NCBI RefSeq assembly: GCF_000799565.1
Contig: NZ_JUHB01000001.1
Span: 1 to 64,000, forward strand
Reading direction: 5' to 3'
Source: Cellulophaga sp. Hel_I_12
GTDB lineage: Bacteria > Bacteroidota > Bacteroidia > Flavobacteriales > Flavobacteriaceae
Length of the DNA stretch: 64,000 nt
A program made the position numbers and the translations under genes. Every line of letters begins with the position of its first letter. The first letter of the stretch is position 1. The notes under the pieces are model-generated. The model was not told where the DNA came from, searched no databases, and saw nothing but the letters and a program-made list of their open reading frames with translations. Below, piece after piece: positions 1,690-64,000 of the stretch.

Positions 1690-1907
1690 ATTACTTCAAG
1701 AACAGCTCCGTTTAGTCCGATTTTCAGTCCGTTATCTAGGTTTTCGGTCAGCTTTATTTTCTTGTAAAGTATTTTTTTTTCAATTTTTTTTAATTCCGCT
1801 TTTTGTTTATCCTTAATTCCGAACAATTTTTCCTTTATCCAATCGTATAAAGCCCGAATTGCAACATAAATTCCGCCAATTATCCATTCAAAAATTAGTT
1901 CTCCCAT
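1690..1907 (-). pseudogene. Cassette gene truncated by IS21 (DUF4926-like, second copy)
   Basis: The first 72 or so residues match the complete 109-residue protein at 23473-23802 (MGELIFEWIIGG at the start). The DUF4926-like C-terminal half has been replaced by IS21, and translation would end two codons inside the element at about 1683. The right end box TACACACAAC survives, but the left-hand site of this cassette is gone. The next site to the right (family C) differs from that of the intact copy (family A), so the two copies arrived as separate cassettes. Confidence 0.85.
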
Positions 1908-1939
1908 TTATAGAATTCGCTTTTTCTCACATTACACAC

Positions 1940-2131
1940 AACGGTTCGGCTATGGCAAGTAGGGCAGTAAGGAAACCTTTTCGTTTCCGTCTGCGCTCGT
2001 AGCCAAAGCTTTTTGTTTTGTTTTTATCTTTTTCATTTTAAAAGCCAAATCCAAAAGATTTGGCAGTCATTGCAAACAAGCCTAAGCCAATAAATTTAGC
2101 GCTTTTTGCCCTATTTGCTATAGGCATTGTT
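1940..2131. repeat. attC-like site 1 (family C, 192 bp)
   Basis: Definition used for all sites: from AAC (end box of the cassette on the left) to GTT (start box of the cassette on the right). Left spacer of 5-6 nt, outer stem GGCTATGGCAAGTAGGGC pairing with GCCCTATTTGCTATAGGC, right spacer of 3 nt. Inside are two hairpins: GGAAAC/GTTTCC and GCCAAATC/GATTTGGC. The outer stem on the plus strand has G.T pairs at positions 7 and 12. Start box to the right: GTTACCTAC. Confidence 0.93.
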
Positions 2132-2133
2132 AC

Positions 2134-2622
2134 CTACAGTTTTTTATGCGTCATCTTATCGGTCAGTATTAATTTTTCCACCGTTTTAATCAGTGATGAT
2201 ATTTTAAATCGCGCGATTAATTCGATTATTAGTGAGTAAATCAGTCCGAAAGTCGGCATAATTAAAAACTCGACTTTGCTAAATCCGTTCATAGCTAATT
2301 GATATACAGCAATTGTTAAAGTCAGTCCGACAAAAAATATTCCAAACCAAAATTGCATCTTATAAGTAATTCCGTTAATCCTTTTTAGAGTTAGTTTGCT
2401 TTCGGTTCCATTTTCATTTGTATTTACCGCATTTGCAATAAGTTTCACTAACGGCCCTAAATTTGGAGTAAAAGCAAAAAATGATAAATTTCCATAGATT
2501 TCTATTCCTCCGTCCTCAGAAAATCCTCCTGCAATATTGTTCCGTCCTATTTCTGAATTAATTATTTCAATAATGCTGTTAGCCGAATTGTTAAGGTTAT
2601 ATACTTTTGTTTGGTCGTTCAC
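2134..2622 (-). CDS. Unknown membrane protein with two C-terminal helices
   Basis: Protein of 162 residues with no family I recognise. Residues 1-100 look soluble; two hydrophobic helices follow (FGIFFVGLTLTIAV and FLIMPTFGLIYSLII), so it is probably an inner-membrane protein with a cytoplasmic or periplasmic head. The frame stays open upstream into the neighbouring site, but that extension would be encoded by the site itself; I choose the GTG at 2622, the only plausible start inside the cassette. The cassette is bounded by GTTACCTAC and GTAGGTAAC. Confidence 0.75.
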   Translation of the reverse strand: MNDQTKVYNLNNSANSIIEIINSEIGRNNIAGGFSEDGGIEIYGNLSFFAFTPNLGPLVKLIANAVNTNENGTESKLTLKRINGITYKMQFWFGIFFVGLTLTIAVYQLAMNGFSKVEFLIMPTFGLIYSLIIELIARFKISSLIKTVEKLILTDKMTHKKL

Positions 2623-2644
2623 AGTGTTATTTGAAATTGTAGGT

Positions 2645-2831
2645 AACGGTTTGTATATGAAACGTAGCGTGCAAAAAGACACAGAAGTTTCGGATTATAC
2701 ACAAGCCAGATTTTTAAATTTTCTTTTTATCTTAATTTCTCAAAAAGCCAAATTTAAAAATTTGGCGATCTTCGAAAATACACAAAAACCTCTCGGAAAG
2801 CCTATAATAGCTATGTTTTATATACGTTGTT
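2645..2831. repeat. attC-like site 2 (family H long, 187 bp)
   Basis: Outer stem GTATATGAAACGTAGC pairs with GCTATGTTTTATATAC. Inner hairpin GCCAAATTT/AAATTTGGC. Opens the cassette with start box GTTGTAAAC. Confidence 0.9.
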
Positions 2832-2844
2832 GTAAACAGTTTTT

Positions 2845-3396
2845 TTATATTTCTTCATCATATCCGAACCAATGGTTAAAACATTTAACTTTTTCAGATT
2901 CTATTTCAATGAATTTGTTTTTCGTTAAATCTATTTTCCACACTTTTAAGATATGGTTTTTGTCAAAATATTCTTTGTCTTGATTTTTTGCTATTCCGAA
3001 TATGAATTTTTCGTTAGATTTGTCGGCCATCTTACAATCAGTCGGTTCAGAGAACAGTTTTGATTTGTCTGCAATCAATTGAACTTCGTCTAATATTTTA
3101 AAATTCACTTTCGAAGGATTATCTCTAATAATCTGTTCCAAAACCAGTACTTGTATGCTATCTTTCTGGAGGTATGAAAGTGCTTTGTCAGTACCGTCCA
3201 AAACCATTCCAACAATTTCAGTAAATCCTTTGTATTTATCCAACTCCGTTATTTTTCGATAAACAGTTTGGTCTTCATTTTCTATTAATAGAATTTCACT
3301 TTTTTTGTTAGTTTCAGAAACGGGTTGTTTCTTACTCTCTTTACAACTTAAAGTCAGAATAATTATTGAAATTGCTATTAAGTTTCTCGTTTTCAT
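2845..3396 (-). CDS. Unknown lipoprotein, 183 aa
   Basis: The N-terminus is a lipoprotein signal peptide: basic MKTRN, a hydrophobic stretch, then the lipobox LTLSC with Cys at about residue 17. The remainder is a soluble periplasmic or surface domain of no family I can name. The stop lies 13 bases from the site. Cassette boxes GTTGTAAAC and GTTTACAAC. Function unknown. Confidence 0.82.
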   Translation of the reverse strand: MKTRNLIAISIIILTLSCKESKKQPVSETNKKSEILLIENEDQTVYRKITELDKYKGFTEIVGMVLDGTDKALSYLQKDSIQVLVLEQIIRDNPSKVNFKILDEVQLIADKSKLFSEPTDCKMADKSNEKFIFGIAKNQDKEYFDKNHILKVWKIDLTKNKFIEIESEKVKCFNHWFGYDEEI

Positions 3397-3407
3397 AAAT
3401 TGTTTAC

Positions 3408-3599
3408 AACGTTTAGGCTATGGCAAGTAGGGCAGGAAAGGAAACTTTTCGTTTCCGCCTGGGCTCTTAGCCAAAGCTTTTTGTTTTGTTTTTATCTTTT
3501 TCATTTTAAAAGCCAAATCCAAATGATTTGGCGGACTTAGTAAAATAGCCCAAGTCATTAAATATAGCACTTTATGCCCTATTTGCTATAGGCATTGTT
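3408..3599. repeat. attC-like site 3 (family C, 192 bp)
   Basis: Close to site 1; hairpin GCCAAATC/GATTTGGC. Opens the cassette with start box GTTAGCACAA. Confidence 0.93.
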
Positions 3600-3611
3600 A
3601 GCACAAGTTTT

Positions 3612-4235
3612 TTATTCTTCCCACATTTTTATTTCATATATTTTTTCATGAAACCCATATAGCAATATTGTATCGTTGTAGATTTTCTTAATTACTTTGG
3701 GAGCTGCAAACTCTTGAAAAATTATATCAAATCCATTGTGATTTATTCTTTTATAATATTCATGACTCTCTTCAAAAGGTTGAGAGTCAAATGAAATTTT
3801 TCCATTAAGATAACTAACATTGGAAAAATGATGTCCATCTAGGTCTACTTCGAATTTCTTTCCGCTAATAATGATTTTATCGGTTTCTGTTTTTTTCAAC
3901 GAATCGTTAAGTTTCTTAAAAGTGTATGATGTTGTCTCGTCTACAATCATTAAACTATCAGCGCTAATTAATCCAATTGACAGATTAATACTATCATTAA
4001 GTATTAATTGATTTTTTTTCAGTTCAAATAACCCGCTGGATTTTTCGTAAAAAGCTGGTCCACTAAAAGATTCTGATTCGAAATGTCCATTTTTGAAGGT
4101 AAACACTTCGTTAAAAATTGCAACCTTACTTTGTGAGTCCGTATAACACAAAACCCATGTCCCGTCAATTTTTGAATTTGAGCAGGCCAAAAATACAAGG
4201 CTGAAAATTGATATGATTAAAATTCTTTTTTTCAA
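3612..4235 (-). CDS. Unknown lipoprotein, lipocalin-like composition
   Basis: I start at a TTG (4235) that gives MKKRILIISIFSLVFLAC, a clear lipoprotein signal with Cys at residue 18; the longer frame would read back through the neighbouring site. The mature part is rich in short beta-like segments and includes IDGTW near its start, as in many small Bacteroidota lipoproteins with a lipocalin-like barrel. That fold is a guess. Length 207 residues. Boxes GTTAGCACAA and TTGTGCTAAC. Confidence 0.78.
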   Translation of the reverse strand: MKKRILIISIFSLVFLACSNSKIDGTWVLCYTDSQSKVAIFNEVFTFKNGHFESESFSGPAFYEKSSGLFELKKNQLILNDSINLSIGLISADSLMIVDETTSYTFKKLNDSLKKTETDKIIISGKKFEVDLDGHHFSNVSYLNGKISFDSQPFEESHEYYKRINHNGFDIIFQEFAAPKVIKKIYNDTILLYGFHEKIYEIKMWEE

Positions 4236-4245
4236 AATTTGTGCT

Positions 4246-4433
4246 AACGTTTGGGCTATGATTAGTGCGGTGCAGAAATCCGACGGATTTCCAACCAAGC
4301 ACTAAGCAAAAGCAGTTTTTTTTGTTTTAAATTTTTTATCTCAAAGCAAAATCAAACTGATTTTGCGGACTTTATAAATATACACAAAGCACAGAATTAA
4401 ACACCAAGGCCCGCATTAATTATAGCCGTTGTT
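4246..4433. repeat. attC-like site 4 (family A, 188 bp)
   Basis: Outer stem GGCTATGATTAGTGCGG with CCGCATTAATTATAGCC. Inner hairpins GAAATCC/GGATTTC and GCAAAATC/GATTTTGC. It precedes the gene-less cassette and matches site 31, which precedes the same cassette elsewhere. Confidence 0.93.
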
Positions 4434-4731
4434 AGCAAAAGTATATTTTTTCTGCGTTCAGATTCACTGCTCAGTTTTTCCGTTCAGTTTTTCAATTCCG
4501 ACTGCGTAAAGTTTGCGTTTTGCTTTTCAATTCCAATTACACAAAGTTTGTAAATTCTGTCTGCGTAATCTTTGCGCTTTGCTTTTCAATTCCAACTACA
4601 CAAAGTTTGTAAATTCTGTCTGCGTAATCTTTTCGTTTTGCTTTTTTAATTCCGTCTTTTTTCTCCTTAAAAGACTCCGTTTAGCCAGCTCGATTTAAGT
4701 TCAGTTTTTGCTGTCTTTGGATATTTTTGCT
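4434..4731. other. Gene-less cassette, copy 1 (about 300 bp)
   Basis: The cassette has start box GTTAGCAAAA and end box TTTTGCTAAC but no minus-strand reading frame. It is built of T-rich, degenerate units around TTCCGnCTGCGTAA and contains a 65-bp tandem duplication (from about 4520 to 4650). A 61-codon plus-strand frame arises from the duplication and is not believed. Copies at 16755, 31488, 54457 and 59381. It could be a decayed gene or specify a small RNA; nothing in the sequence decides this. Confidence 0.8.
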
Positions 4732-4920
4732 AACGTTTCAGCTATGAGTAGTGCGGAGGCAAGGAAACCTTTTTGTTTCCGTCTGCGCACGTAGCAAAAG
4801 CTTTTTGTTTTGATTTATTTTTTTTCGCCAGAGCAAAATCCAAAAGATTTTGCGGACATAGTAAATATACGCTTACTTTAAATTAAATACCAAAACCCCG
4901 CATTACTTATAGGTATTGTT
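4732..4920. repeat. attC-like site 5 (family B, 189 bp)
   Basis: Outer stem AGCTATGAGTAGTGCGG with CCGCATTACTTATAGG. Hairpins GGAAACC/GTTTCC and GCAAAATC/GATTTTGC. Start box to the right GTTAGGCACA. Confidence 0.93.
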
Positions 4921-4932
4921 AGGCACAGTCTT

Positions 4933-5577
4933 TTATTTTTTTCGGTTTAGTTTTCTTAAATCCTTTTTCTCTAATCTGGCGGCTTTTCTGTCTCTTTTGA
5001 GCATGTCATTTTGAGTCAGATAATGAATTGCAATCATTATTTGAATGTTTCTATTCTCTAAATTCCAATTTGATGGTGCTTTTTGGATATTTGAGGCGAG
5101 AAATATTCCGTCATCGAAAGCGCCGATATTTTGCAATTTCTCGGCATAGTATTCTAAATATTTGTTTGATTTGCCCAATTCTTTTGCAAAATCAATAAAC
5201 AATTTGTTTTGACTAAAGCAAATGCTTTGATATTCATATTTAGGATCAACTTCCCTCCAAGTTTTACATATTGCCCATATTTTATTAAATGTAGAATCAG
5301 ATATTTTAGAATATAATTTTTTCTGATTTCGGTAATTAATTTTTTGTCTTACGTAATTATTTTCTAAGTCAACCAATTCAGGTAGAGATTTTGTAATGCA
5401 CTCCACAAATTTCCCCCTGTCTTTAGTCCCACAAATTTGTTCTTGAAAAAAATCCGTAATTAGATTCAAGTCCTTAATCTCGGTTTTTGAGAAATAGTTT
5501 TTCAAATCAAGTTCTGTTTTCTGACCTAAACAAGTTCCAAATACGAAAAGTAAAATATAGAGCAATTTGAATTTCAT
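4933..5577 (-). CDS. Unknown secreted protein, 214 aa
   Basis: Signal peptide at residues 1-18 (MKFKLLYILLFVFGTCLG, cleavage after G before QKTEL). The mature part is mostly helical and charged, with four Cys (residues 49, 60, 104 and 120) that could pair in the periplasm, and ends in a basic tail (RKAARLEKKDLRKLNRKK). No family recognised. Boxes GTTAGGCACA and TGTGCCTAAC, the latter containing the canonical integron core GCCTAAC. Confidence 0.82.
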   Translation of the reverse strand: MKFKLLYILLFVFGTCLGQKTELDLKNYFSKTEIKDLNLITDFFQEQICGTKDRGKFVECITKSLPELVDLENNYVRQKINYRNQKKLYSKISDSTFNKIWAICKTWREVDPKYEYQSICFSQNKLFIDFAKELGKSNKYLEYYAEKLQNIGAFDDGIFLASNIQKAPSNWNLENRNIQIMIAIHYLTQNDMLKRDRKAARLEKKDLRKLNRKK

Positions 5578-5594
5578 TTGTTTAGATTGTGCCT

Positions 5595-5779
5595 AACGTT
5601 CAGTATAAGAAACGTAGGGCAGGTGATAAGCGATACGTTTCGGTTTGGTACTAAGCCAAATATAATATTTTGCTTTTATCTTTTTTGTTGAAAATGCCAA
5701 ATTTTATATTTGGCGGCTTTATAAATAAGCACAGACCTTACGGGAAGCCAAAACCGCCCTATGTTTTTTATACATTGTT
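5595..5779. repeat. attC-like site 6 (family H-like, 185 bp)
   Basis: Outer stem GTATAAGAAACGTAGGGC with GCCCTATGTTTTTTATAC. Start box GTTGTAGTGC. Confidence 0.9.
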
Positions 5780-5792
5780 GTAGTGCGTTTTT

Positions 5793-6392
5793 TCATTTTT
5801 CAGATAACAGTTTTACAATATTCTGGCGATATTCCTCATCTTTTTCATTCAATTCGACAGTTCCGTTTTTTAAGTCAGGATTTATATAGAATTCAGCGTA
5901 TAGATTTTGCTCATTGTTGTCGTCAAAAAACAGCTTAAATTTAAATCGACCATTTTCTAAAGTTGCGTTTTCTCGGTTTAAAGGAAATATTGTGAAAGTC
6001 AGTTTTTCAGTCGAGAATTTTGTTTGTTTAGGTTGTCCATAAAGTTTAGAAATTACACCTATTAACTTATCGCTATCAGTTCCGATTGATTGTATTTCAA
6101 TTCCGTTTTCTACAAATCTTGTATTGTCAAGCTCATTATTCACGATTCCGGCTTGAATTCCGTCCGCAATATTGATTTTTAGTCCAACAATCTGATTTTC
6201 ATATTTTGCTTTACACGTCAAACTCCAAAATCCATTGTCTATTTTTTCCTTTTTAGTGATTGTGAAAATTAAATCTTGCCAACCTTCTTCAGCGTCTTGA
6301 TTTGAAGTCAGTTCAATTAGATTTTTGTTTTGACTAAATCCGAAAACGCTACTTAAAATTCCCATTATTAATATCAGTTTCTTGATTTTCAT
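5793..6392 (-). CDS. Unknown secreted protein, 199 aa
   Basis: Signal peptide MKIKKLILIMGILSSVFGFS followed by a beta-rich domain. It is probably periplasmic or exported; there is no lipobox and no family recognised. The start lies 26 bases from the cassette end box, and the leader carries the CTCAAATG motif (plus-strand reading) seen in several cassettes. Boxes GTTGTAGTGC and GCACTACAAC. Confidence 0.82.
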   Translation of the reverse strand: MKIKKLILIMGILSSVFGFSQNKNLIELTSNQDAEEGWQDLIFTITKKEKIDNGFWSLTCKAKYENQIVGLKINIADGIQAGIVNNELDNTRFVENGIEIQSIGTDSDKLIGVISKLYGQPKQTKFSTEKLTFTIFPLNRENATLENGRFKFKLFFDDNNEQNLYAEFYINPDLKNGTVELNEKDEEYRQNIVKLLSEK

Positions 6393-6415
6393 TAGGTTGC
6401 TCTCAAATGCACTAC

Positions 6416-6605
6416 AACGTTCAAGCTATGAGTAGTGCGGACACAGAAATCCGACGGATTTCCAGCTACGCACGTAGCAAAAGCTGTTTGTTATGTTTTT
6501 TATTTTTAGTTCACAAAGCAAAATCAAACTGATTTTGCGGACACTTTAAATATTCACAGAACTTTGGATTTAACACCAAACTCCGCATTACTTATAGGTA
6601 TTGTT
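6416..6605. repeat. attC-like site 7 (A/B chimera, 190 bp)
   Basis: The outer stem is of family B (GAGTAGTGCGG with CCGCATTACTTATAGG), while the inner hairpins are of family A (GAAATCCGACGGATTTC and GCAAAATCAAACTGATTTTGC). This suggests recombination between sites. Start box GTTGTGCGTA. Confidence 0.92.
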
Positions 6606-6625
6606 GTGCGTAGGCTTTTTTTATT

Positions 6626-7162
6626 TTACTTCTTCACGAATAATATTGTTTTCCTGTTTTTCCAATCACTTTGGTCCATTTGATATTCAAACGACAATTT
6701 AGAATTTTCTCCGCTTCCAGAAGGATTCACCCATTGCAATAGGGCACCTTCTTTATCGTAAAATTCGAACATTCCATCAATTCCGCCCGTTTTCCAAGTT
6801 CCATTTTTCTTAAGTCCAATCCCTGCAATAACGTCAAATTCATATGTACCATTCGAGATCAAAATCAATTCGACTTCATTTGAGTTAATTCCATTTTCAT
6901 TTAATAATTCCATGGCCTGTTTATTCGGTGCGTAAGTTCCTGAAAAATCTTCCATTTCACTTTTGTTAAATGACGGAACTGCAATGAAATACCAAAAAGC
7001 TATTAGTCCAAAACATAGTACAGGTATTATTCCAATTCCAATAGCAATTTTTATTTGCTTCTCAGATTTTTTAATTATTCCAACTATTACACTAATCACA
7101 GAAATAGTCAAAAATAATCCACCGACAAAAATTAAAAACATAAATAATAAACTTTCCAGCAT
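6626..7162 (-). CDS. Unknown membrane-anchored protein, 178 aa
   Basis: Two hydrophobic helices at residues 4-31 and 39-65 (LFLTISVISVIVGII; IGIIPVLCFGLIAFWYF), then a soluble domain of about 110 residues with SGTYAPN and NGTYEFD. That motif layout resembles small lipocalin-like domains, here probably facing the periplasm. No confident family. Boxes GTTGTGCGTA and TACGCACAAC. Confidence 0.8.
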   Translation of the reverse strand: MLESLLFMFLIFVGGLFLTISVISVIVGIIKKSEKQIKIAIGIGIIPVLCFGLIAFWYFIAVPSFNKSEMEDFSGTYAPNKQAMELLNENGINSNEVELILISNGTYEFDVIAGIGLKKNGTWKTGGIDGMFEFYDKEGALLQWVNPSGSGENSKLSFEYQMDQSDWKNRKTILFVKK

Positions 7163-7182
7163 ATTTTTTTTAGCTTACGCAC

Positions 7183-7305
7183 AACGGTCTCGGCTATGAG
7201 TAGTTGCGTGGGTTAGCACTTAACTTAGCAAGTACACACCAAACTGAAAATCCGCGAGGATTTTCAGAAGTAGGCGAGAACAAGCAATTACTTATAGCCA
7301 TTGTT
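7183..7305. repeat. attC-like site 8 (family F2 short, 123 bp)
   Basis: Outer stem GGCTATGAGTAGTTGC with GCAATTACTTATAGCC and one inner hairpin GAAAATCC/GGATTTTC. Lacks the second inner hairpin of long sites. Start box GTTGTAACAC. Confidence 0.9.
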
Positions 7306-7313
7306 GTAACACG

Positions 7314-7883
7314 TTATTTTTTATTATTCAGTGGAAATGTAATTCCGACCGCAAATGCTCCAGCATACTGTTCGACAGATGGTTGAAAATAATAAGCAAA
7401 TCCTAAATCAACATTATTATTTTTTCCCAATTCAAGTCCAAATGAAAATGGAATATGGTAAATGATTCCGCTTTTGTCTATGTTATCAAATGCCGTAAAT
7501 GTTTCAAATTTCCCAATTGAAGTTCCAATCCCAATTTCTACATAAGGTGCTACCCAAGGAATTGGTGCTCTAACTCTTGCTTTTCCTCCAAGTAAAAAGG
7601 CTTTTGATTCAGCTTTTTCATCAGTTGGATTACCATTTAGGTCTTCTCCATTTGAACTTGTCAAGATAAAACCTGCATATGGTCTAAATTCAATCCAAGA
7701 CTTTACTTTAAGCACTAATTCTCCTTGTGCAAAAAACCCATCATCTACAACTTCATCGACACTGTTATTTGGTGCGCTCAATCCATATCCGATTTGGGCA
7801 TTTATTGATTTTTCTTTAATGAATTGCGCTTCAACTAAATTCGAAGTCAGAGCGATTATTAATAATATCAGAGTTTTTTTCAT
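7314..7883 (-). CDS. Outer-membrane beta-barrel-like protein, 189 aa
   Basis: Signal peptide MKKTLILLIIALTSNLVEA. The mature protein has alternating amphipathic strands (INAQIGYGLSAP, WIEFRPYAGFIL, VAPYVEIGIGTSIG, NVDLGFAYYF, FAVGITFPL), the pattern of small eight-stranded outer-membrane barrels. Substrate or role cannot be read. Boxes GTTGTAACAC and GTGTTACAAC match perfectly. Confidence 0.82.
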   Translation of the reverse strand: MKKTLILLIIALTSNLVEAQFIKEKSINAQIGYGLSAPNNSVDEVVDDGFFAQGELVLKVKSWIEFRPYAGFILTSSNGEDLNGNPTDEKAESKAFLLGGKARVRAPIPWVAPYVEIGIGTSIGKFETFTAFDNIDKSGIIYHIPFSFGLELGKNNNVDLGFAYYFQPSVEQYAGAFAVGITFPLNNKK

Positions 7884-7893
7884 AATGTGTTAC

Positions 7894-8082
7894 AACGTCA
7901 AAGCTATGAGTAGTGCGGAGGCAAGGAAACCTTTTCGTTTCCGTCTGCGTACTTAGCAAAAGCTTTATGTTTTGTTTTAATTTTTTTTCGTCAAAGCAAA
8001 ATCCTAAAGATTTTGCGGACACTTTAAATATACACTTAGTTTTGAATAAACACCAAACTCCGCATTACTTATAGGTATTGTT
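7894..8082. repeat. attC-like site 9 (family B, 189 bp)
   Basis: The same site, cut by IS21, stands at 43582-43645 in front of the second copy of the next gene. Start box GTTGTGTAC. Confidence 0.93.
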
Positions 8083-8109
8083 GTGTACAGTGTTTTTTAT
8101 TTAATTCAC

Positions 8110-8481
8110 TCACTCCAAATTTTTCCATCCACTTATTCCATTCTTTTTTAGTAATAATAATAAGTATATAATTACAAAACCAAAAAATCCTAATGCTGCA
8201 ATTAAAATTCCATAACCGTTTACTAAATTGAAAATTAGTATCGACAAACTTGTAATTAAGAGTCCATAGAACGCCCATTTTTTCCAATTCAAAATCATTA
8301 TTGTAAACGTAATATCAGATAACCCAATAAGTAAAAGAAAAATATTGTCAAAATCAGGTCCAGAAAATACAGATTGGAAATCATCCTTTAATAAATAAAT
8401 TCCAATACCCAAAGTCAGATATAGATATATTGTTAAAACGATATTCCTCTTTTGGAAGTTTTTTTGATTTATTAATATCAT
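8110..8481 (-). CDS. Unknown four-helix membrane protein, 123 aa
   Basis: Four hydrophobic segments (IVLTIYLYLTLGIGIYLL; IFLLLIGLSDITFTIMIL; WAFYGLLITSLSILIFNLV; ILIAALGFFGFVIIYLLLLL) with a charged C-terminal tail. No family recognised. A second copy at 46180-46498 is truncated at the C-terminus by IS21. Boxes GTTGTGTAC and GTACACAAC. Confidence 0.82.
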   Translation of the reverse strand: MILINQKNFQKRNIVLTIYLYLTLGIGIYLLKDDFQSVFSGPDFDNIFLLLIGLSDITFTIMILNWKKWAFYGLLITSLSILIFNLVNGYGILIAALGFFGFVIIYLLLLLKKNGISGWKNLE

Positions 8482-8523
8482 AAATTAATGTAAATTTTAA
8501 GCGATTCTTGGGACATTGTACAC

Positions 8524-8709
8524 AACGCTTCAGCTATGAGTAGTGCGGAGGCAAGGAAACCTTTTTTTCTGTCTTCGCACGTAGCAAAAGCTTTTTGTTT
8601 TGATTTATATTTTTTCGCCAGAGCAAAATCCAAAAGATTTTGCGGACATAGTAAATATACGCTTACTTTAAATTAAACACCAAACTCCGCATTACTTATA
8701 GGTATTGTT
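8524..8709. repeat. attC-like site 10 (family B, 186 bp)
   Basis: The first inner hairpin is slightly decayed (CTTTTTTTCTGTC). The next gene runs 18 bases into this site and takes its stop codon from it. Start box GTTGTACACA. Confidence 0.92.
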
Positions 8710-9255: not shown

Positions 9256-9275
9256 TCGGTTCTCAACTTGTGTAC

Positions 9276-9463: not shown

Positions 9464-9474
9464 GTACACCGTTT

Positions 9475-55680: not shown

Positions 55681-55707
55681 GCCAGTAGTTTTTATACATT
55701 CAGGCTT

Positions 55708-56130: not shown

Positions 56131-56158
56131 TCTATTCTGTTTTTCTCAAATTACTGGC

Positions 56159-56857: not shown

Positions 56858-56871
56858 TATTAATTACTGCC

Positions 56872-57059: not shown

Positions 57060-57176
57060 GTAATCAGTAGCGACACGCATGAGTAAGAACGAACGATTGT
57101 GTTTCCTTATTTTTTCCGCCCGAGTGAAGTCCATCTGCGCAACAGTTGCGTCTGATTGAAGTCCGTTCGCAATTAT

Positions 57177-57641
57177 TTATTTTTTAATCATTTGTGGAAT
57201 AAATTCGTCTTCTTGCCCAAATCTATATTCAATATTTTTTTCTCGAAAGAAAGTTAATATTTCTATTAGTTCAGTTTTATTAACTTGACTTTCTAAAGTA
57301 ACATAAATCCAGTCCATTTCGTCAGCTTTGTTTTCCTGATTTGGGAGACTTGCAATGATTTCGGTTTTACAAGATTCAGAGGAATGGAATTTTAAGTCTT
57401 TCATCATTAGTCCGTCTTCTGAAAATAGAATGAAGTTGTTTATCATTCTTTCAGGTTTATAAACTGTTTTAAGAGTATCATTCTTAATTGACTGAATCCA
57501 AACATTAAACTTTTTTTGAAAAACTTGAAGTTCCGTGTTAGACGCTGCATCAGCTTGAACTTCGAAATTATTGTCATTTTGTCCAGACATTAGAAGAGGA
57601 ATTTGAAAAAGAATAATAATAAATAAGAGTTTTCTTTTCAT
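57177..57641 (-). CDS. Unknown secreted protein, 154 aa (copy 2)
   Basis: Copy of 41654-42118, with the same signal peptide and no difference seen. Site, gene-free stretch and gene (41349-42138 and 56872-57661) match end to end, about 790 bp; the match stops at GATTACAAC. Confidence 0.85.
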   Translation of the reverse strand: MKRKLLFIIILFQIPLLMSGQNDNNFEVQADAASNTELQVFQKKFNVWIQSIKNDTLKTVYKPERMINNFILFSEDGLMMKDLKFHSSESCKTEIIASLPNQENKADEMDWIYVTLESQVNKTELIEILTFFREKNIEYRFGQEDEFIPQMIKK

Positions 57642-57658
57642 TTGGAGCTATTGATTAC

Positions 57659-57781
57659 AACGGCCCTGGCTATGGCAAGTGCGGGAATTTGAAACCGAAT
57701 CTTTGTCCGCCAGACCGAATGTTATTAGTTGCAATATCTTTATTTTTAAGCAGTCAGCCCGCATTTGCTATAGCCGATGTT
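57659..57781. repeat. attC-like site 62 (short, unique type, 123 bp)
   Basis: Outer stem GGCTATGGCAAGTGCGGG with CCCGCATTTGCTATAGCC, both G.T pairs present. Inner sequence unlike other families. Start box GTTGTAGCCA. Confidence 0.9.
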
Positions 57782-57794
57782 GTAGCCAGTGCTT

Positions 57795-58316
57795 TTATTT
57801 TTCTTTTTTTAATTTATAAAGCGTATTCCAATTCAGTCCGCCATTGTCGTGATTCTCCCAAAATGTTCTTAAATCTTCAACCGTCTTAAAATTCTCTTTT
57901 TCTGGTCCGAATTGATAGTCAGTTAGGAAGTAGATTTTATTGTCAGGAGAGTTGTCAATAGCAATCTCCAAAATTCGGTTTATGTCATTTTTGTACTCTT
58001 GTCTGAATTGGAATTTGAAGTCTTGATTTGCGTAACTATTGTCTTGGTTACTTTTTAGTCCTTTTCGTTTTTTGTCAAAGTCAGGATCTTCAAATTCCCA
58101 GTCAATTATTTGTCCAGCAAAGTATCCACTATCCTTATCGGTTTTAAATTCAGGGTTGCCGATATGAATGATTGTTCCTTTTTGCTTTAGAAGAAAGTCA
58201 TAGAATAGTCCTCTGTGACTCTCAAGTTTCTTTTCCTCAATAATGGCAACATCAAAGTCATCTTGATTTAGGTCAAATCCAGTCGAGTTAATTGATGCTA
58301 TTTCTATTGTCGGCAT
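57795..58316 (-). CDS. Unknown cytoplasmic protein, 173 aa
   Basis: Soluble alpha/beta protein. MPTIEIASINSTGFDLNQ and FDVAIIEEKKLESHRGLFYDFL suggest a first beta-alpha unit, GTIIHIGNPEFKTDKDSGYFAGQIIDWEFED a second; the end is LRTFWENHDNGGLNWNTLYKL. It may be an orphan immunity-like protein, but no family is clear. Boxes GTTGTAGCCA and TGGCTACAAC. Confidence 0.8.
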   Translation of the reverse strand: MPTIEIASINSTGFDLNQDDFDVAIIEEKKLESHRGLFYDFLLKQKGTIIHIGNPEFKTDKDSGYFAGQIIDWEFEDPDFDKKRKGLKSNQDNSYANQDFKFQFRQEYKNDINRILEIAIDNSPDNKIYFLTDYQFGPEKENFKTVEDLRTFWENHDNGGLNWNTLYKLKKEK

Positions 58317-58346
58317 TTTCTTGGTTGTCTTTTTTGCATTGGCTAC

Positions 58347-58536
58347 AACGTTTCAGCTATGCGTAGTGCGGAAGCAAACTTGCGCTTAACTTTCCGTTTA
58401 GTACAAAGCCAAAACAGTTTTTTTGGATTTTAATTTTTTTGTTTTAAAGCTAAATCAAACTGATTTGGCGACTTAGTAAATATACACAAAACTTAGAATT
58501 TAACACCAAACCACCGCATGACGTATAGGTATTGTT
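58347..58536. repeat. attC-like site 63 (family D2, 190 bp)
   Basis: Nearly the same as site 56. Start box GTTACCACAC. Confidence 0.92.
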
Positions 58537-59192
58537 ACCACACGTTTTTTTTGGTTTTTGTTGCCAATTGTTATTCCAGTATTACTTTTCCATAAAGTTT
58601 TTAAAATCCAACTGCAATACTAGCTTTAGAGTACGTTTAAATCCAACAATACAGGATTGAGTTTTTTGTCCGACTGCGTAAGAGTTGTATTTCGATTAGA
58701 TGTGATTAAGGACGTCTTTTTTATGCGGCTAATTTTTTTTACAAGCCTTTCAAATTGGCGCTTAAAAATTCCCAAAAGCGCCGTTCAAATTAAGAGGTAA
58801 GAAGTAACTTGTTCAATTCGTGATCAAACGCTTCTCGCTTGCACGCCTCTTACAAGTTACTCCTTTCCAAGGTATTATGAAAATATATTTGTTGTAGGAC
58901 ATTGATTTTCAGCTAACTGACCGCTTGTTAATCATGTTTTGAGCATGTTCATTTTTTTCTTGATAAAAAAACGAACCAAAAAAATCAAGGCTTGTCCCTT
59001 CGGATATATTTCACATCCTCAACGCTAAATCAAATGAACTCGCTATCGCTCAAACAGCATTTGATTTTTAACGCTTTCTGCGGTGGAAATATTAATCCTG
59101 CCAGGGAACTAGGCCATAAAAAGCCAGAATTGAAGATAAGAACACTTAAGATGATTTAGTGCAGAGTAAACCGCTTAGACGCAATGTGTGGT
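58537..59192. other. Large gene-less cassette, copy 2 (about 655 bp)
   Basis: Same as 53612-54269 with scattered substitutions and small indels (for example TATTCCAG for TATTTCCGG). The inverted segment and hairpin are kept. No gene. Confidence 0.78.
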
Positions 59193-59380
59193 AACGCTCG
59201 GGCTATGATTAGTGCGGTGCAGAAATCCGACGGATTTCCAACTAAGCACTAAGCAAAAGCAGTTTTTTTTGTTTTAAATTTTTTATCTCAAAGCAAAATC
59301 AAACTGATTTTGCGGTCATTATAAATATACACAAAGCACTGAATTAATCACCAAAGTCCGCATTAATTATAGCCGTTGTT
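59193..59380. repeat. attC-like site 64 (family A, 188 bp)
   Basis: Start box GTTAGCAAAA; precedes copy 5 of the gene-less cassette. Confidence 0.93.
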
Positions 59381-59619
59381 AGCAAAAGTATATTTTTACT
59401 GCGCTCAGATTCCCTGCTCAGTTTTTCCGTTCAGTTTTTCAATTCCGACTGCGTAAAGTTTGCGTTTTGATTTTCAATTCAAATTACACAAAGTTTGTAA
59501 ATTCTGTCTGCGTAATCTTTGCGTTTTGCTTTTTTAATTCCGTCTTTTTTCTCCTAAAAAAACTCTGTTTAGCCAGCTTGATTTAAGTTCAGTTTTTGCT
59601 GTCTTCGGATATTTTTGCT
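59381..59619. other. Gene-less cassette, copy 5 (about 240 bp)
   Basis: Same type as at 4434; one 65-bp unit, with the sub-lineage changes of copy 2 (TTCCCTGCTC, TTCGGATATT). Like copy 4, it stands immediately to the right of the large gene-less cassette. Confidence 0.8.
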
Positions 59620-59743
59620 AACGTTTAAGTATATGAAAAGTTGCGTGCAAAAAAGCGCAAATTTTTCGGTTTAGTATTGACCATAAAAATACAATAAGAC
59701 CAATGAATTAAGCACTTACCAGCAATTTTTTATATACATTGTT
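59620..59743. repeat. attC-like site 65 (family H short, 124 bp)
   Basis: Outer stem GTATATGAAAAGTTGC with GCAATTTTTTATATAC. Opens the restriction-modification cassette, start box GTTAGCCAC. Confidence 0.92.
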
Positions 59744-59799
59744 AGCCACTAGCTTTATTCCGTTCTGTATTTCAGTTCCAATATTTTCTTGTCGGTTCG

Positions 59800-59885
59800 G
59801 ATTGAGCGTTGGCAAGACATACTCTTTTGCAATTTTGGGTGGTGTGTTGGCTTGAGCGAATTGCAAATGTGTATGGCTTTAAGCG
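59800..59885. repeat. GCGTTGG/TTGCAAATGTG element, copy B
   Basis: GAGCGTTGGCAAGACATAC, TTTTGCAA, TTGGCTTGAGCGAATTG, CAAATGTGTATGGC, then AAGCGTTGGC. Aligns with copy A at 18720-18837. The GCAAGACATAC..TTTTGCAA and TTGCAAATGTGTATGGC arms can pair. Confidence 0.75.
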
Positions 59886-59891
59886 TTGGCT

Positions 59892-61202
59892 TTATTTGTT
59901 CGTAATATCAATTATTTCGTTTGTCTTATACAAATTCGGCAGAAACTGTGATTTAATTCGGAATTGGCTACGTTTCTTGATTTTCGGTTTTGTAGAGATA
60001 TTTTCCATTTTAATTCCTGGGTCATAATAAATATTCCCTTTTGCCATTTCTCCTAAAAACAGTTGAAAATCAGTTCCAGTTCCCAAAATTATGTTGTTTC
60101 CATATTTATATTTTCTGTCGCCAGTCGTTTCGGAAAGTGATGGAACATAACAAGCTTTATTATGCTTTCTGTTCCAATGTAGTAGCATTGAGGCAAAACT
60201 CCACGAAGCAGCTTCGTTGTCATTTTTATCAATTAAAGCAATTCTGCCATTTGTATTCCTAATTTTTCCGCTTTGTTGGTCAAATCCGACCAGTTGCATT
60301 TCCAAGTCAGTTAAATGATGTCTCACTCCAGTTTTATGAACTCCACCAAAATTCATTCGGTCTTTTCTGCCCATTTTGTCAGCATAACCATAATTTTTGA
60401 TAAAATATTCGGTTCCTTGAGTTCTGTAGATTCCGTCTGTTGGTTCTGGTGTCATTAAAGTTATGACAGAAGATTTTATATTTTCAAATTTCTTAACGCC
60501 AAATTGTTTAACTTCCCAACCCATAAAATCAGGTTCAGAGTAGCCATTTGGTGTGATTCCCAATTCCGCTTCTAAAGTATAACCACCACAATTTGGTGAC
60601 CTGCAAGGTAAAATGTTTCCGATAGAATCAAGTCGTTTGGATGTTATCCAACCAAGTTGATAGATACGAAGTAGCTCATTTAATAATACTTCTCGATTGT
60701 TTGCGGATTGTGGCAATTCAATAACTGCAAAAACTCCGTGTTCAGAAACGGTTGGCTCACTTTTAAATTCCTTGGCAATTTCCGAGTCTGGTCCGGCAAC
60801 ATATCCTAAAACTGTTCCAGTTTTTGTTACTGCAAAGAACAAAAGTCTGTCAGCAAGTCTTTGTGTCATTAATTCAGATGGTGGTTTTTGACAACCAGAA
60901 AGAAAACCTGAAAATCTAACTTCAGGATATTTTGGATAAAGAATTAATTGGGCTTTTGGTGCAGGAATAATATTGCCATCATCGTTTAGCCAACTGAAAT
61001 TTATTTTTGCTTTAAATCGTTCCTTGTTCCAATCGCCAGCTTCCTCTGTTGTGATTTCGGAAAGCGGTAAAATGTTTAAGATTTCAAAGTTACCACCGAA
61101 ATAAACTTGATTTTTGGAATTGTCGTTTGGCGCAAGTGTTTTTACGTAGATTTTTTTACAGCCATTATTGGTAAACAGCGACTTTAGATTTTTTAGATTC
61201 AT
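59892..61202 (-). CDS. Type II restriction endonuclease, MvaI/BcnI family
   Basis: 436 residues. The C-terminal half holds the MvaI/BcnI catalytic core: GYTLEAELGITPNGYSEPD then FMGWEVKQFGVKKF, with D, E and K of the D-(X)n-E-x-K site (EVK). These enzymes cut as monomers at CCWGG (MvaI) or CCSGG (BcnI); here CCWGG is likelier given the Dcm-like partner, by inference. The N-terminal half is a mostly beta region seen in longer family members. Its ATG overlaps the methyltransferase gene by 38 bp, so expression is coupled and the protecting enzyme is made first. Confidence 0.88.
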   Translation of the reverse strand: MNLKNLKSLFTNNGCKKIYVKTLAPNDNSKNQVYFGGNFEILNILPLSEITTEEAGDWNKERFKAKINFSWLNDDGNIIPAPKAQLILYPKYPEVRFSGFLSGCQKPPSELMTQRLADRLLFFAVTKTGTVLGYVAGPDSEIAKEFKSEPTVSEHGVFAVIELPQSANNREVLLNELLRIYQLGWITSKRLDSIGNILPCRSPNCGGYTLEAELGITPNGYSEPDFMGWEVKQFGVKKFENIKSSVITLMTPEPTDGIYRTQGTEYFIKNYGYADKMGRKDRMNFGGVHKTGVRHHLTDLEMQLVGFDQQSGKIRNTNGRIALIDKNDNEAASWSFASMLLHWNRKHNKACYVPSLSETTGDRKYKYGNNIILGTGTDFQLFLGEMAKGNIYYDPGIKMENISTKPKIKKRSQFRIKSQFLPNLYKTNEIIDITNK

Positions 61203-62400
61203 TGATTTTCAAAAGTTCTTTTACAATGTTTTCGCTAACCGCTTGAAATAATGGGGTTACAACAGAATTGCCAAATTGTTTATATGCTTGATTATCAGAA
61301 ACAGGAATTATGAAATTATCTGGAAATCCTTGAAGTCTTGCACATTCTCTCGGTGTTAATCTTCGTGGGTTTTTACCTTTTTGAGGTATTAAAATTTCTG
61401 CTCCATCTTTGTAATAACGAGCACTCATCGTTCTTGAAATTCCATTGAGGTCAGTTAAGCCAAATCCAAATCCGTTTCCTTTTGCTTTATGCTTTTTCTT
61501 GTATTCTTGAAGGTAGTTCCAAAGTTTATCTGAAAGCGTGTATTTTGGGTCAACTTTTGGTTCAAGAATGTCTTTGATTGCGTAAGTTTTGTTTGTTGGC
61601 TCTGGAAATTTAAAGGTTTCTTTGCCTTTGAAAACAGATTTTTTAAAGCCTACAATTACAATTCTTTCGCGATGTTGAGGAACGTAATTTTGACCATCTA
61701 AAATTTTATAATGAAGATTGTAACCTAAATCGGTTAGGGTTTCTGTTATGACTTTAAAAGTTTTTTTCTTATCGTGTGAAACAAGATTTTTGACGTTTTC
61801 CAACATAAAAACCGAAGGTTTTTTATAATCTAAAATTCTTGCAATGTCAAAAAATAATGTTCCTTGTGTTTTATCCAAAAAACCGTGAGCTCTACCTAAA
61901 GCATTTTTTTTGGAAACTCCTGCAATTGAAAAAGGTTGACAAGGAAAACCTCCAAGTAAAATATCGTGGTCAGGTATGTCTTTTTCTGAAATTTCGGTAA
62001 TGTCGCCAAATGGCACTTCTCCAAAATTAGCTTCGTAAGTTTTTTTTGAATAGGTGTCCCATTCGCTTGTAAAAACACACTTTCCACCGTTATTTTGGTA
62101 AGCCATTCTTAATCCGCCAATTCCTGCGAAAAGGTCGATGAACTTAAATTTAGGTTCTGTTTGTGGTGGAAAAGGAATGTCCCATTTTATTGGTAAATAA
62201 TATTGAAAATCAGGTTCTTCAACTATGTTTAATTTTTCGTGCAGTTCAGTCAAATATTCCTTTGCGGTTGGCTGAAAATATTGGGAAACACCATTTTTGT
62301 GATTTTGAAAATAGTGTGTTAAATGAGCTAAATCGTTGTCGGTTTTTTTGTCAACAACAATTTGAAGTTTGTCCTTTATTTTTGAATATCGTTTGTCCAT
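61165..62400 (-). CDS. DNA (cytosine-5) methyltransferase
   Basis: 411 residues with all main C5-methyltransferase motifs: I FKFIDLFAGIGGLRMA, IV GGFPCQPFSIAG (catalytic PC), VI MLENVKNL (ENV), VIII HRERIVIVGF, IX RRLTPRECARLQGFPDNF and X QFGNSVVTP. The 90-residue N-terminal extension and the overall order resemble Dcm (CCWGG). It protects host DNA from the endonuclease encoded next to it. First gene of the cassette. Confidence 0.95.
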   Translation of the reverse strand: MDKRYSKIKDKLQIVVDKKTDNDLAHLTHYFQNHKNGVSQYFQPTAKEYLTELHEKLNIVEEPDFQYYLPIKWDIPFPPQTEPKFKFIDLFAGIGGLRMAYQNNGGKCVFTSEWDTYSKKTYEANFGEVPFGDITEISEKDIPDHDILLGGFPCQPFSIAGVSKKNALGRAHGFLDKTQGTLFFDIARILDYKKPSVFMLENVKNLVSHDKKKTFKVITETLTDLGYNLHYKILDGQNYVPQHRERIVIVGFKKSVFKGKETFKFPEPTNKTYAIKDILEPKVDPKYTLSDKLWNYLQEYKKKHKAKGNGFGFGLTDLNGISRTMSARYYKDGAEILIPQKGKNPRRLTPRECARLQGFPDNFIIPVSDNQAYKQFGNSVVTPLFQAVSENIVKELLKINESKKSKVAVYQ

Positions 62401-62479
62401 AGTTATCTGTAAAGAACGTAAAAATTAGCCTAAAATTCACGGTTTTGCTTTCAAATTCTTAACAATCTTGTTAACGTGA

Positions 62480-62590
62480 TTTCGAGCGCAAAGGCGAAAA
62501 CAGCTCTTTTATTTTTTTGAGCGTTGGCTTTAAGCGTTGGGAAAAAAATGAATGTGCTGTTTCTGCGGCTGGCTTTTCCGATGGATTTTT
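62480..62590. repeat. GCGTTGG/TTGCAAATGTG element, copy D
   Basis: Right end of the R-M cassette, upstream of the methyltransferase gene: GAGCGTTGGCTTTAAGCG, GAATGTGCTG and TGCGGCTGGC in the same order as in copy C at 23085-23250. The remaining gene-free sequence from 62401 to 62625 shows nothing else I can identify. Confidence 0.65.
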
Positions 62591-62625
62591 AATTCAAGTC
62601 CGGATTTTTTTTTCAGCTTGTGGCT

Positions 62626-62815
62626 AACGTCTCGTATATGAAAAGTAGCGCTGAAAATAAGCGATAACTTTTTGGATGAACACAAGCCGAATTTTTAAAT
62701 TTTACTATTTATTTTATTTTTGGAAATTTGTCAAATTTAAAAATTTGGCGACTTTCCAAAAATGCCCAAGCCTTCCTGTTAGCAACGACTTGCGCTATTT
62801 TTTATATACATTGTT
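62626..62815. repeat. attC-like site 66 (family H long, 190 bp)
   Basis: Outer stem GTATATGAAAAGTAGCGC with GCGCTATTTTTTATATAC (left partner written GCGCT). Long AAATTTTTAAATTT inner arms. Start box GTTACCACAC. Confidence 0.92.
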
Positions 62816-62833
62816 ACCACACGTTTTTCTGCG

Positions 62834-63187
62834 TTACAATATCAGATTTTCCAATTGATTGCGAATTGAAAATAAAAATAATACAATTAAAAGTGTAATC
62901 AGATTAGTTTTGAATTTCACATATTCTTGTTTTCGGTATTCCTTAATTATTAAATAGATTAAAATTCCGCCAACGATTAACATTGGAAGATAATTTATTA
63001 TTAAATCAACATACCACAATTCCGCTATTCTACTTGAGCCTGCACCTGAACCATATAAAAGAAAAAAAGCAATAATCTCAATCAGAAACAAAAGGATAAT
63101 CATTGTAAAAAATATTAATGACCTAATTCCAATACCGAAATAATTGGTTTTTACATTAAAAAAATCGGCGATTTTAAATTCAGTCAT
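62834..63187 (-). CDS. Unknown three-helix membrane protein, 117 aa
   Basis: Second gene of a two-gene cassette; its start overlaps the end of the upstream gene by eight bases. Three helices (LIFFTMIILLFLIEIIAFFLLY; LIINYLPMLIVGGILIYLII; FKTNLITLLIVLFLF). No family. Confidence 0.8.
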   Translation of the reverse strand: MTEFKIADFFNVKTNYFGIGIRSLIFFTMIILLFLIEIIAFFLLYGSGAGSSRIAELWYVDLIINYLPMLIVGGILIYLIIKEYRKQEYVKFKTNLITLLIVLFLFSIRNQLENLIL

Positions 63188-63614
63188 TTTTAATATTATA
63201 ATCCAACCAATATTTTGCCATTGTCAACATTTCGTTCGTAAACATATTATTCAGCTCTAACTTTTCGAAATAAGTACAACCTGAACAAACAGAAACTAAT
63301 TCAGATGATCGTTTAATTCCTGCAATCAAATTTAATTCCGTTTGGTTAAGATTATATTTCCCAATTTCAGTCAGTTTTTCCAGAATGATTACAGACATAT
63401 ATTTTTCCGCCGTATTTTCCGAACTCAACTTTTTCGAAATCCATTTATAGTTTTCGCTTTTAATTTTTTTCGCAAACTTTTCAACCGTTTTAGATTCGCT
63501 ACCCTCAAAGTAGCAAGCAAACCCAACCATTTCATTTTTATCCACGTTGTCTTGAGCATTTAAAACGCTTAAAATTCCGATTAGAAATACTATAGTCAAT
63601 ATTTTAGTTCGCAT
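63180..63614 (-). CDS. Unknown secreted protein, 144 aa
   Basis: Signal peptide MRTKILTIVFLIGILSVLNA, cleaved before QDNVDKN; ATG at 63614 preferred to one three codons upstream. Mature part helical, with three Cys (GFACYF, CSGCTYF). Co-transcribed with the membrane protein at 62834. Leader carries CATTTTTCTCAAATG on the plus strand. Boxes GTTACCACAC and GTGTGGTAAC. Confidence 0.8.
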   Translation of the reverse strand: MRTKILTIVFLIGILSVLNAQDNVDKNEMVGFACYFEGSESKTVEKFAKKIKSENYKWISKKLSSENTAEKYMSVIILEKLTEIGKYNLNQTELNLIAGIKRSSELVSVCSGCTYFEKLELNNMFTNEMLTMAKYWLDYNIKND

Positions 63615-63632
63615 TTTTCTCAAATGTGTGGT

Positions 63633-63823
63633 AACGGTCGAGTATATGAAAAGTAGCGCTGAAAAAGTGCGCTATCCATTCGGTTGTACTCGAGCCGAAT
63701 TTTTAAATTTTTCTATTTATCTTTCTTTTCTCAAATAGCCAAATTTAAAAATTTGGCGACCTCGAAAAAGTGCCCGAACCTTTGTGTTTGCAACTGCTCG
63801 CGCTATTTTTTATATACATTGTT
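63633..63823. repeat. attC-like site 67 (family H long, 191 bp)
   Basis: Outer stem GTATATGAAAAGTAGCGC with GCGCTATTTTTTATATAC; inner hairpin GCCAAATTT/AAATTTGGC. Start box GTTGCCCACA; the matching end box lies outside the window. Confidence 0.92.
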
Positions 63824-64000
63824 GCCCACAGGTTTTATCCGCGTCATTGTCCAATCTAAATCACGAAAATGAGGACTGCTTTCGTATTCTAATTCATAGA
63901 ATTTTAACCTTTCGAATGGTACAGGTTTTAATAATTTAAAATTAATATGCTGTAAGCGTTCAAATTTTTCTCTTTTTGGCAATTTAGGAATTATTTCACG
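63803..64000 (-). CDS. Unknown gene, C-terminal 65 codons only, stop inside the site
   Basis: A minus-strand frame is open from the right window edge and ends at a TAG in the outer stem of site 67. It reads PVPFERLKFYELEYESS and HFRDLDWTMTRIKPVGNN; the last residues (NNVYKK) are site-encoded, as for the genes at 8692, 24003 and 56333. No family can be named from this fragment. The 5' end is outside the window. Confidence 0.75.
   Translation of the reverse strand, partial: REIIPKLPKREKFERLQHINFKLLKPVPFERLKFYELEYESSPHFRDLDWTMTRIKPVGNNVYKK

What the first reader, a model, noticed from the sequence alone, without database searches (positions are those of the whole stretch)
1690..64000. A 67-site gene-cassette array of integron plan in a Bacteroidota genome
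Seen: 67 structured sites in 62 kb, one every 930 bp on average, with every cassette gene on the minus strand and its 3' end next to the site on its left. Known: integron arrays have this plan (gene followed by attC, all genes in one direction, gene-less and toxin-antitoxin cassettes, duplicated cassettes). Inference: this is a sedentary integron-like array or a cluster of attC-like sites whose integrase is elsewhere. The sites are longer and differently folded than proteobacterial attC, so standard attC covariance models may miss them.
Basis: partly seen in the sequence, partly recalled or inferred. Interest (0 to 1): 0.95.

Follow-up and report, generated by a model that had tools for sequence, protein, structure and literature searches.

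The report
Patchless integron: folded-site gene-cassette array
A bacterial genome carries 80 gene cassettes joined end to end, which are likely captured and shuffled as folded single-stranded DNA hairpins by a nearby recombinase that lacks a part defining the classical integron integrases, so gene capture of the integron kind is probably more widespread than thought and may not need that part.

Summary
The window lies inside an array of 80 cassettes tiling 78,736 bp without a gap; 65 cassettes and 66 sites are complete in the window. In 66 of 80 cassettes the 7 nt after the opening GTT are perfectly complementary to the 7 nt before the AAC of the cassette's own site (13 more at 6/7). Identical cassettes sit at different places with breaks at GTT. 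The site stem covaries and has two A.C mismatches in 45 of 45 sites, G.T on the bottom strand, whose stem is predicted more stable in 79 of 79.

Seven kb beyond the window, at the array's start, lie an attI-like site and a tyrosine recombinase that is not IntI: no patch, below the IntI cut-off, outside the IntI clade. Homologues (E <= 1e-50) occur in 165 of 345 genomes of the class; 29 of 47 examinable loci have at least two such cassettes downstream, against 0 of 7 XerC/XerD loci. A divergent zinc-ribbon-like gene accompanies 37 of 75.

Best reading: a second, patchless integron lineage. Recombination itself is untested.

The parts
1943..63635 (-). 65 complete cassettes, end to end (part of an 80-cassette array, contig 70,994 down to 1 and on across the contig origin to 4,023,385). 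Outside the window, same contig coordinates: attI-like site 70,992-71,033 (-), patchless tyrosine recombinase 71,034-72,161 (-), divergent companion gene 72,253-72,642 (+)
   Evidence: array; platform:
1943..2131 (-). attC-like site of the last complete cassette in the window (long class); the sites of the chain are listed by coordinate
63636..63823 (-). first complete attC-like site in the window (long class)
57662..57781 (-). example of a short-class attC-like site (120 nt)
18488..18607 (-). short-class site that closes the 4,843-bp cassette
18488..23330 (-). largest cassette: five genes scanned (LigB-like, DsbA-like, short-chain dehydrogenase, YceI, AraC-type regulator)
11120..13564 (-). 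cassette C58, 2,445 bp with (by eye) an IS3-type insertion, 100% identical to first cassette C01 (contig 68,550-70,994)
13565..14382 (-). cassette C57, 100% identical to C02 (contig 67,732-68,549); order relative to C01/C58 is swapped
56875..57661 (-). cassette C12, 100% identical to C27
41352..42138 (-). cassette C27, 100% identical to C12
35257..36089 (-). cassette C35, 99.88% identical to C59
10287..11119 (-). cassette C59, 99.88% identical to C35
31303..31788 (-). cassette C41 without a sense gene, 100% identical to C67
4249..4734 (-). cassette C67 without a sense gene, 100% identical to C41
59623..62628 (-). cassette C08: MvaI/BcnI-type endonuclease gene and C5 cytosine methylase gene
24528..25467 (-). 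cassette C48: two-gene pair matching PD-Lambda-2 A and B
50987..51786 (-). cassette C20 with a ParE-type toxin-like gene
42733..46543 (-). cassette C25 (own match only 5/7), enlarged by, by eye, an IS21-type pair of genes on the + strand

Best explanation
This is an integron-like array of 80 gene cassettes, joined end to end, that are likely excised and inserted one at a time at GTT by a neighbouring tyrosine recombinase without the integron-integrase patch, which is predicted to read each cassette's site as a folded bottom-strand hairpin. Shown: the cassette boundaries, the self-complementary ends, the covarying stem with two fixed A.C mismatches (G.T on the bottom strand), identical cassettes at different places, a first cassette that opens 39-57 nt after the recombinase in 12 loci, and the recombinase-array association across the class. 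Inferred: in the free circle a cassette's start meets its own site, so that the outer stem closes; the bottom strand folds better than the top because its mismatched positions are G.T pairs, which would set the strand; the recombinase joins this hairpin to the double-stranded attI, and one strand exchange followed by replication inserts the cassette, as in classical integrons. The divergent small gene would be a regulator or recombination helper.
For: 80 cassettes tile 78,736 bp; own 7-mers 7/7 in 66, 6/7 in 13, 5/7 in 1 of 80, against neighbour matches of 0-6. Random pairing control. L-stem covariation 0.493 against 0.108 +/- 0.014, 0 of 500 shuffles; A.C in 45 of 45 at both positions; in 199 of 203 chained sites (79 of the main array, 120 from 25 other loci; 4 dropped for poor stems) A.C 401, C.A 20. 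Bottom strand more stable in 79 of 79 (stem arms) and 77 of 79 (whole site). Identical cassettes with breaks at GTT and swapped order. Recombinase loci with at least 3 kb downstream: 17 of 21 and 12 of 26 with two or more own pairs, sense:reverse 125:3 and 57:2; XerC/XerD 0 of 7, 1:2. First boundary within 200 nt of the recombinase in 21 of the 26 loci with a chained cassette, 12 of them at 39-57 nt; inverted repeat of at least 8 pairs ending 0-6 nt before GTT in 16 of those 21. Two array-linked recombinases in the same genome. Contigs end within 1.49 kb downstream of the recombinase in 14 of 75 loci, upstream in 2 of 75. Active-site residues (named by recall) invariant in 45 homologues.
Against: No recombination was observed; all is sequence inference. 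18 of 47 loci with at least 3 kb downstream show fewer than two own pairs, so some homologues may have another job or lost their array, and the Persicobacter plasmid homologue has none. 'Further standard pair types' in the stem do not exceed shuffles (18 against 18.1). Several duplicates (C69-C70/C75-C76) are blocks that homologous recombination could have copied. The role of the companion gene is a guess; it is absent by this test from 38 of 75 loci.
Confidence: 0.85

Rival explanations
1. The same recombinase moves the cassettes, but on double-stranded DNA, treating the two stem arms as ordinary inverted recombinase-binding sites (Xer/dif-like), with no single-stranded hairpin.
For: The protein is closest in sequence and fold to XerA and lacks the part of IntI tied to folded sites.
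Against: Stem sequences differ among sites of one array while the pairing is kept, so a fixed double-stranded sequence is not what is read; the A.C/G.T asymmetry at fixed positions and the matching of a cassette's two ends are best explained by folding of one strand.
Confidence: 0.08
2. A classical IntI encoded elsewhere moves the cassettes and the neighbouring recombinase is a bystander.
For: Classical IntI exists in other genomes of the phylum: 105 of 395 over the cut-off.
Against: No match over the cut-off in this single-contig genome; of the 112 genomes with a match two are of this family, both below the cut-off; the array-linked recombinase recurs at the same position in many genomes.
Confidence: 0.03
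3. The sites are inert repeats (structured terminators or REP-like elements) spread between genes, and duplicates arose by homologous recombination.
For: Sites lie just 3' of genes (median 13 nt from stop) and are themselves repeats.
Against: Terminators do not predict that the bases before a gene match those after it, nor identity that stops at GTT with different neighbours, nor a recombinase and attI-like site at the array's start.
Confidence: 0.03

Closest known systems
Classical integron with IntI (class 1, Vibrio superintegron)
   Same: Cassettes in one orientation, GTT/AAC core, self-complementary ends extending 9-11 nt (passage in PMC2727003), R stem - internal loop - L stem - variable tip, attI at the array's start
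   Different: Recombinase lacks the IntI patch and is outside the IntI clade; R boxes fit RYYYAAC/GTTRRRY in 4 of 80; L stem has A.C/G.T positions instead of bulged extra-helical bases; recombinase points towards attI; divergent companion gene
Treponema integrons
   Same: Integrase transcribed towards attI, in the direction of the cassettes (passage in PMC3607928)
   Different: The Treponema enzyme is described there as intI; here no IntI patch
XerA (5hxy, 4a8e) and NCBIfam NF040815
   Same: Best sequence and fold matches
   Different: Here tied to cassette arrays and an attI-like site; many members have an extra N-terminal part of about 100 residues, others (297 aa, L051-L053) do not
Tyrosine recombinases beside IS91-type transposases in rhizobial plasmids (L088, L089)
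   Same: About 37-40% identity and the short spacing of 59
   Different: Next to an annotated IS91 family transposase; cassette test not run on them

Membership tests
Integron integrase IntI (TIGR02249) | Score over the curated cut-off of 265 bits | tested here: not met
   193.5 and 200.3 bits for the two array-linked recombinases, in two stretches; no genome match over the cut-off
Integron integrase IntI (TIGR02249) | IntI-specific additional domain / patch | tested here: not met
   Spacing from the lysine motif to HxLRH: 58-59 residues in the 31 of 32 family proteins where measurable, 64-66 in 7 of 7 XerC/XerD, 100 in 17 of 17 IntI; the stretch left unaligned between query and IntI4 (2a3v) is 43 residues longer in IntI4
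Integron integrase IntI (TIGR02249) | Tyrosine-recombinase active site (R K H R H Y) | tested here: met
   R235, K260, H324, R327, H350, Y359 invariant in 45 homologues; their roles assigned by recall
Integron integrase IntI (TIGR02249) | Placement inside the IntI clade | tested here: not met
   11 IntI form one clade, 100/99, with none of the 25 family members inside
attC site | AAC ... GTT core at the outer ends | tested here: met
   80 of 80 by construction of the chain; also 63 of 63 profile-found complete sites
attC site | R-box consensus RYYYAAC / GTTRRRY (recalled) | tested here: not met
   4 of 80 and 4 of 80; GTTR 80 of 80
attC site | Imperfect hairpin with R stem, unpaired spacer and L stem | tested here: met
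   Predicted folds of circular-form sites and covariation
attC site | Extra-helical (bulged) bases in the L stem | tested here: not met
   In the 16 against 16 stem columns examined there is no gap in 45 window sites; two A.C (bottom strand G.T) positions in 45 of 45 instead. Whether these bases flip out when bound is unknown
Integron platform | attI beside the integrase gene with the first cassette at it | tested here: met
   First boundary within 200 nt of the recombinase in 21 of 26 loci with chained cassettes, inverted repeat before GTT in 16 of the 21; attI activity untested
Integron platform | Demonstrated site-specific cassette movement | not testable with these tools
   Only traces of movement: identical cassettes at different places
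XerA-like NF040815 | Score over the curated cut-off of 220 bits | tested here: inconclusive
   235.4 bits for the main recombinase (met), 212.6 for the second (not met)

The most novel reading that the evidence does not exclude
A second integron lineage, whose recombinases occur in about half of the sampled genomes of its class, recombines folded single-stranded cassette sites without the IntI patch, choosing the strand by G.T against A.C pairing; since IntI groups with these enzymes apart from XerC/XerD, hairpin-cassette recombination may predate the patch, and IntI would be a later derivative.
Probability: 0.5. Interest if true: 0.96.

Novelty: new variant of a known kind. Interest (0 to 1): 0.9.

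Why it matters
Integrons are a main known device by which bacteria capture single genes. It has been proposed that gaining an I2-like domain in the catalytic core let a Xer-like ancestor recognise folded single-stranded sites (passages of PMC4792948; that this domain lies in the IntI patch is recalled). A patchless enzyme with 80 cassettes and relatives in 165 of 345 genomes of a class makes that idea directly testable, offers a new strand-choice rule (G.T on one strand, A.C on the other), and would add a large unsurveyed pool of mobile genes in a phylum where a RefSeq survey named one complete Bacteroidetes integron (passage of PMC9024848).

Tried and rejected
Rfam at gathering scores and tRNA/tmRNA scans of the window: nothing. 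The genome-contig scan with a single sequence found only two close loci and one unrelated one, too few; the genome search was used instead. The profile of this genome's sites found nothing in those two loci, although one of them (L016) has a cassette by the own-pair rule: site sequence does not carry over, the rule does. The Persicobacter plasmid homologue (41.7% identity) was tested for an array and has none by strict or relaxed pairing. A pair test without the C/A positions is the same on both strands by construction and gives no strand control; that script stopped at a locus without downstream sequence (L155), and the tally was redone on all 75 loci. The first chain left one 4.8-kb gap because of a 4.5-kb length limit; it is a cassette. 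The 40 loci of the second set were picked by hand from the listed hits, favouring hits away from contig ends. Rows left out of the trees: L040 (broken gene), L056 and L064 (fragments), L042, L044 and three IntI from both; L054, L057 and six near-copies from the careful tree; no IntI-type reading frame was picked up for L078, L083, L084 and L086. In one search the family is one group in only 73% of bootstrap trees, so IntI nested among patchless enzymes is not excluded; only flavobacterial XerC/XerD and no archaeal XerA were sampled, and the program warns of long branches. The N-terminal part of the recombinase was not searched alone; its fold is unassessed. Phage records gave one match covering 80% of the query, the best ones listed at 36-37% identity; not followed. 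Literature: in nine open-access full-text searches no listed paper was recognisable as describing such arrays; preprints and most subscription papers are not held, so prior description cannot be excluded. Papers were seen as search listings and passages only, none whole.
Full report
WHAT IS THERE. The window is bases 1-64,000 of a single 4.03-Mb contig. An iterated nucleotide profile from five seed sites found the structured sites, all in one orientation, in the window and beyond both ends. On the gene-sense (minus) strand every site begins with AAC and ends with CGTT (63 of 63 profile-found complete sites). The seven bases before AAC are the reverse complement of the seven bases after the GTT that opens the same cassette. 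Chaining on this rule from the GTT at contig 70,994 gives 79 cassettes with one gap; the gap is one more cassette of 4,843 bp, with a 6/7 match, so 80 cassettes cover 78,736 bp without a break. Own 7-mers match 7/7 in 66, 6/7 in 13 and 5/7 in 1 of 80; with the start of the next cassette, the partner in the integrated state, matches spread from 0 to 6. In one search the own match averaged 5.95 of 8, the in-array partner 2.90, random pairing 2.80 +/- 0.19 (best of 2000: 3.52).

SITE ANATOMY. Sites are of two lengths, about 120 nt (17 of 80) and 182-190 nt (63 of 80). From outside inwards: an R stem of AAC/GTT plus seven variable pairs, a conserved C.A mismatch (C in 74 and A in 79 of 79) and further pairs; an unpaired spacer; an L stem of about 17 positions; a variable tip. 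On 45 different long sites of the window the L stem is paired in 97.0% of cells (shuffled 76.5), with covariation score 0.493 against 0.108 +/- 0.014 (0 of 500); sliding the partner by one to three columns destroys it; the count of further pair types does not exceed shuffles (18 against 18.1, 314 of 500). At two positions five base pairs apart there is an A.C mismatch in 45 of 45. Across 199 of 203 chained sites (79 here, 120 from 25 other loci), A.C outnumbers C.A 401 to 20. Read on the bottom strand, these are G.T pairs. With DNA energies, circular-form stem arms fold better on the bottom strand in 79 of 79, whole sites in 77 of 79, array-form sites in 70 of 79 (the 80th cassette was not yet in the set). 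I infer that this asymmetry sets the recombining strand, the part played in classical attC by extra-helical bases and the unpaired spacer (passages of PMC2727003).

SIGNS OF MOVEMENT. C01 and C58 (2,445 bp, both with the same, by eye IS3-type, insertion) are 100% identical, as are C02 and C57 (818 bp), but the order is C01-C02 at the array start and C57-C58 inside. C12/C27 and C41/C67 are 100% and C35/C59 99.88% identical. For C01/C58 identity begins exactly at GTT (no identical base upstream, where one is at attI and the other at a site) and ends at the next GTTG. C69-C70/C75-C76 are a neighbouring pair copied together, which homologous recombination could do.

ACROSS GENOMES. Homologues (E <= 0.001) were found in 59 of 60 relatives, a threshold that also catches ordinary Xer enzymes, and at E <= 1e-50 in 165 of 345 genomes of the class, 99 of 178 genera. 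I examined 75 family loci (35 and 40) and 7 XerC/XerD loci. Of loci with at least 3 kb downstream, 17 of 21 and 12 of 26 have two or more perfect own pairs (C and A required), in total 125 sense against 3 reverse and 57 against 2; XerC/XerD: 0 of 7, 1 against 2. The 18 family loci without two pairs are listed there. In the first set 26 of 31 loci with at least 1 kb downstream give a chained cassette with a stem, controls 0 of 7. The first boundary lies within 200 nt of the recombinase in 21 of these 26, at 39-57 nt in 12, and an inverted repeat of at least eight pairs ends 0-6 nt before its GTT in 16 of the 21. Platforms with closely related recombinases open with different cassettes: the opening 7-mers of L009, L015, L016, L028 and L040 all differ. 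Contigs end within 1.49 kb downstream of the recombinase in 14 of 75 loci and upstream in 2 of 75, as expected if repeats break assemblies. A divergent gene of about 125 aa with CxxC...CxxxC, without a Pfam family at its cut-off, lies within 1.6 kb upstream of the recombinase in 22 of 35 and 15 of 40 loci and 0 of 7 controls; further copies elsewhere in genomes of the genus mean that the family has other members too.

CARGO. Of 80 cassettes 72 have a sense ORF of at least 80 aa; the stop lies a median 13 nt before AAC and the start a median 23 nt after GTT. The 20 cassette proteins scanned against Pfam include a restriction enzyme and methylase pair, a ParE-type toxin-like protein, GNAT, RDD, a sigma factor and a Schlafen/AlbA-type domain; five have no family. 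A PADLOC scan of 10 (eight of those again, two others) adds a PD-Lambda-2 pair. Most cassette genes were not scanned.

HOST. The nearest named relative is by inference Cellulophaga algicola: G014, of the same genus, has a contig of 4,888,353 bases, the length given for the longest contig of P0030, which is named so.

CONCLUSION. It works like an integron and is not filed as one with IntI, because the defining patch, score and clade were tested and not met. Classical IntI exists in the phylum, 105 of 395 genomes over the cut-off; the two genomes of this family with a match there are below it. The most exciting open point is whether hairpin-cassette recombination came before the patch.

Noticed in passing
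G000:C1:3,712,001-3,732,000 (L156): A cassette cluster with ten own pairs on one strand and no recombinase match within the fetched 20 kb; further site hits near 1,587,832-1,589,281, 1,737,073 and 3,799,264.
   Followed up: partly
window 1-1599 and 43797-46089: By eye, IS21-type gene pairs on the + strand inside cassettes C71 and C25; C71 spans the contig origin.
   Followed up: no
window 1943-2647 and contig -5105 to -4405 (counted back from the contig origin): C70/C76 are 92.4% identical although their neighbours C69/C75 are 99.9% identical; where the differences lie was not examined.
   Followed up: no
L088 and L089, 7941-8801: Rhizobial plasmid tyrosine recombinases with the same short spacing lie just upstream of an IS91 family transposase, an enzyme family known (recalled) for single-stranded DNA.
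   Followed up: partly
window 59196-59622, 54273-54698, 31303-31788, 16570-16998, 4249-4734: Five related copies of a cassette without a sense ORF above 60 aa, 84-100% identical in the pairs listed.
   Followed up: no
phylum sample: Classical IntI over the cut-off in 105 of 395 genomes of the phylum, mostly outside this class.
   Followed up: partly
L009:10253-10642 and paralogue G000:C1:2,847,383-2,847,721: The companion gene's family has further members elsewhere in genomes of the genus, so its basic function may be wider than the array.
   Followed up: partly
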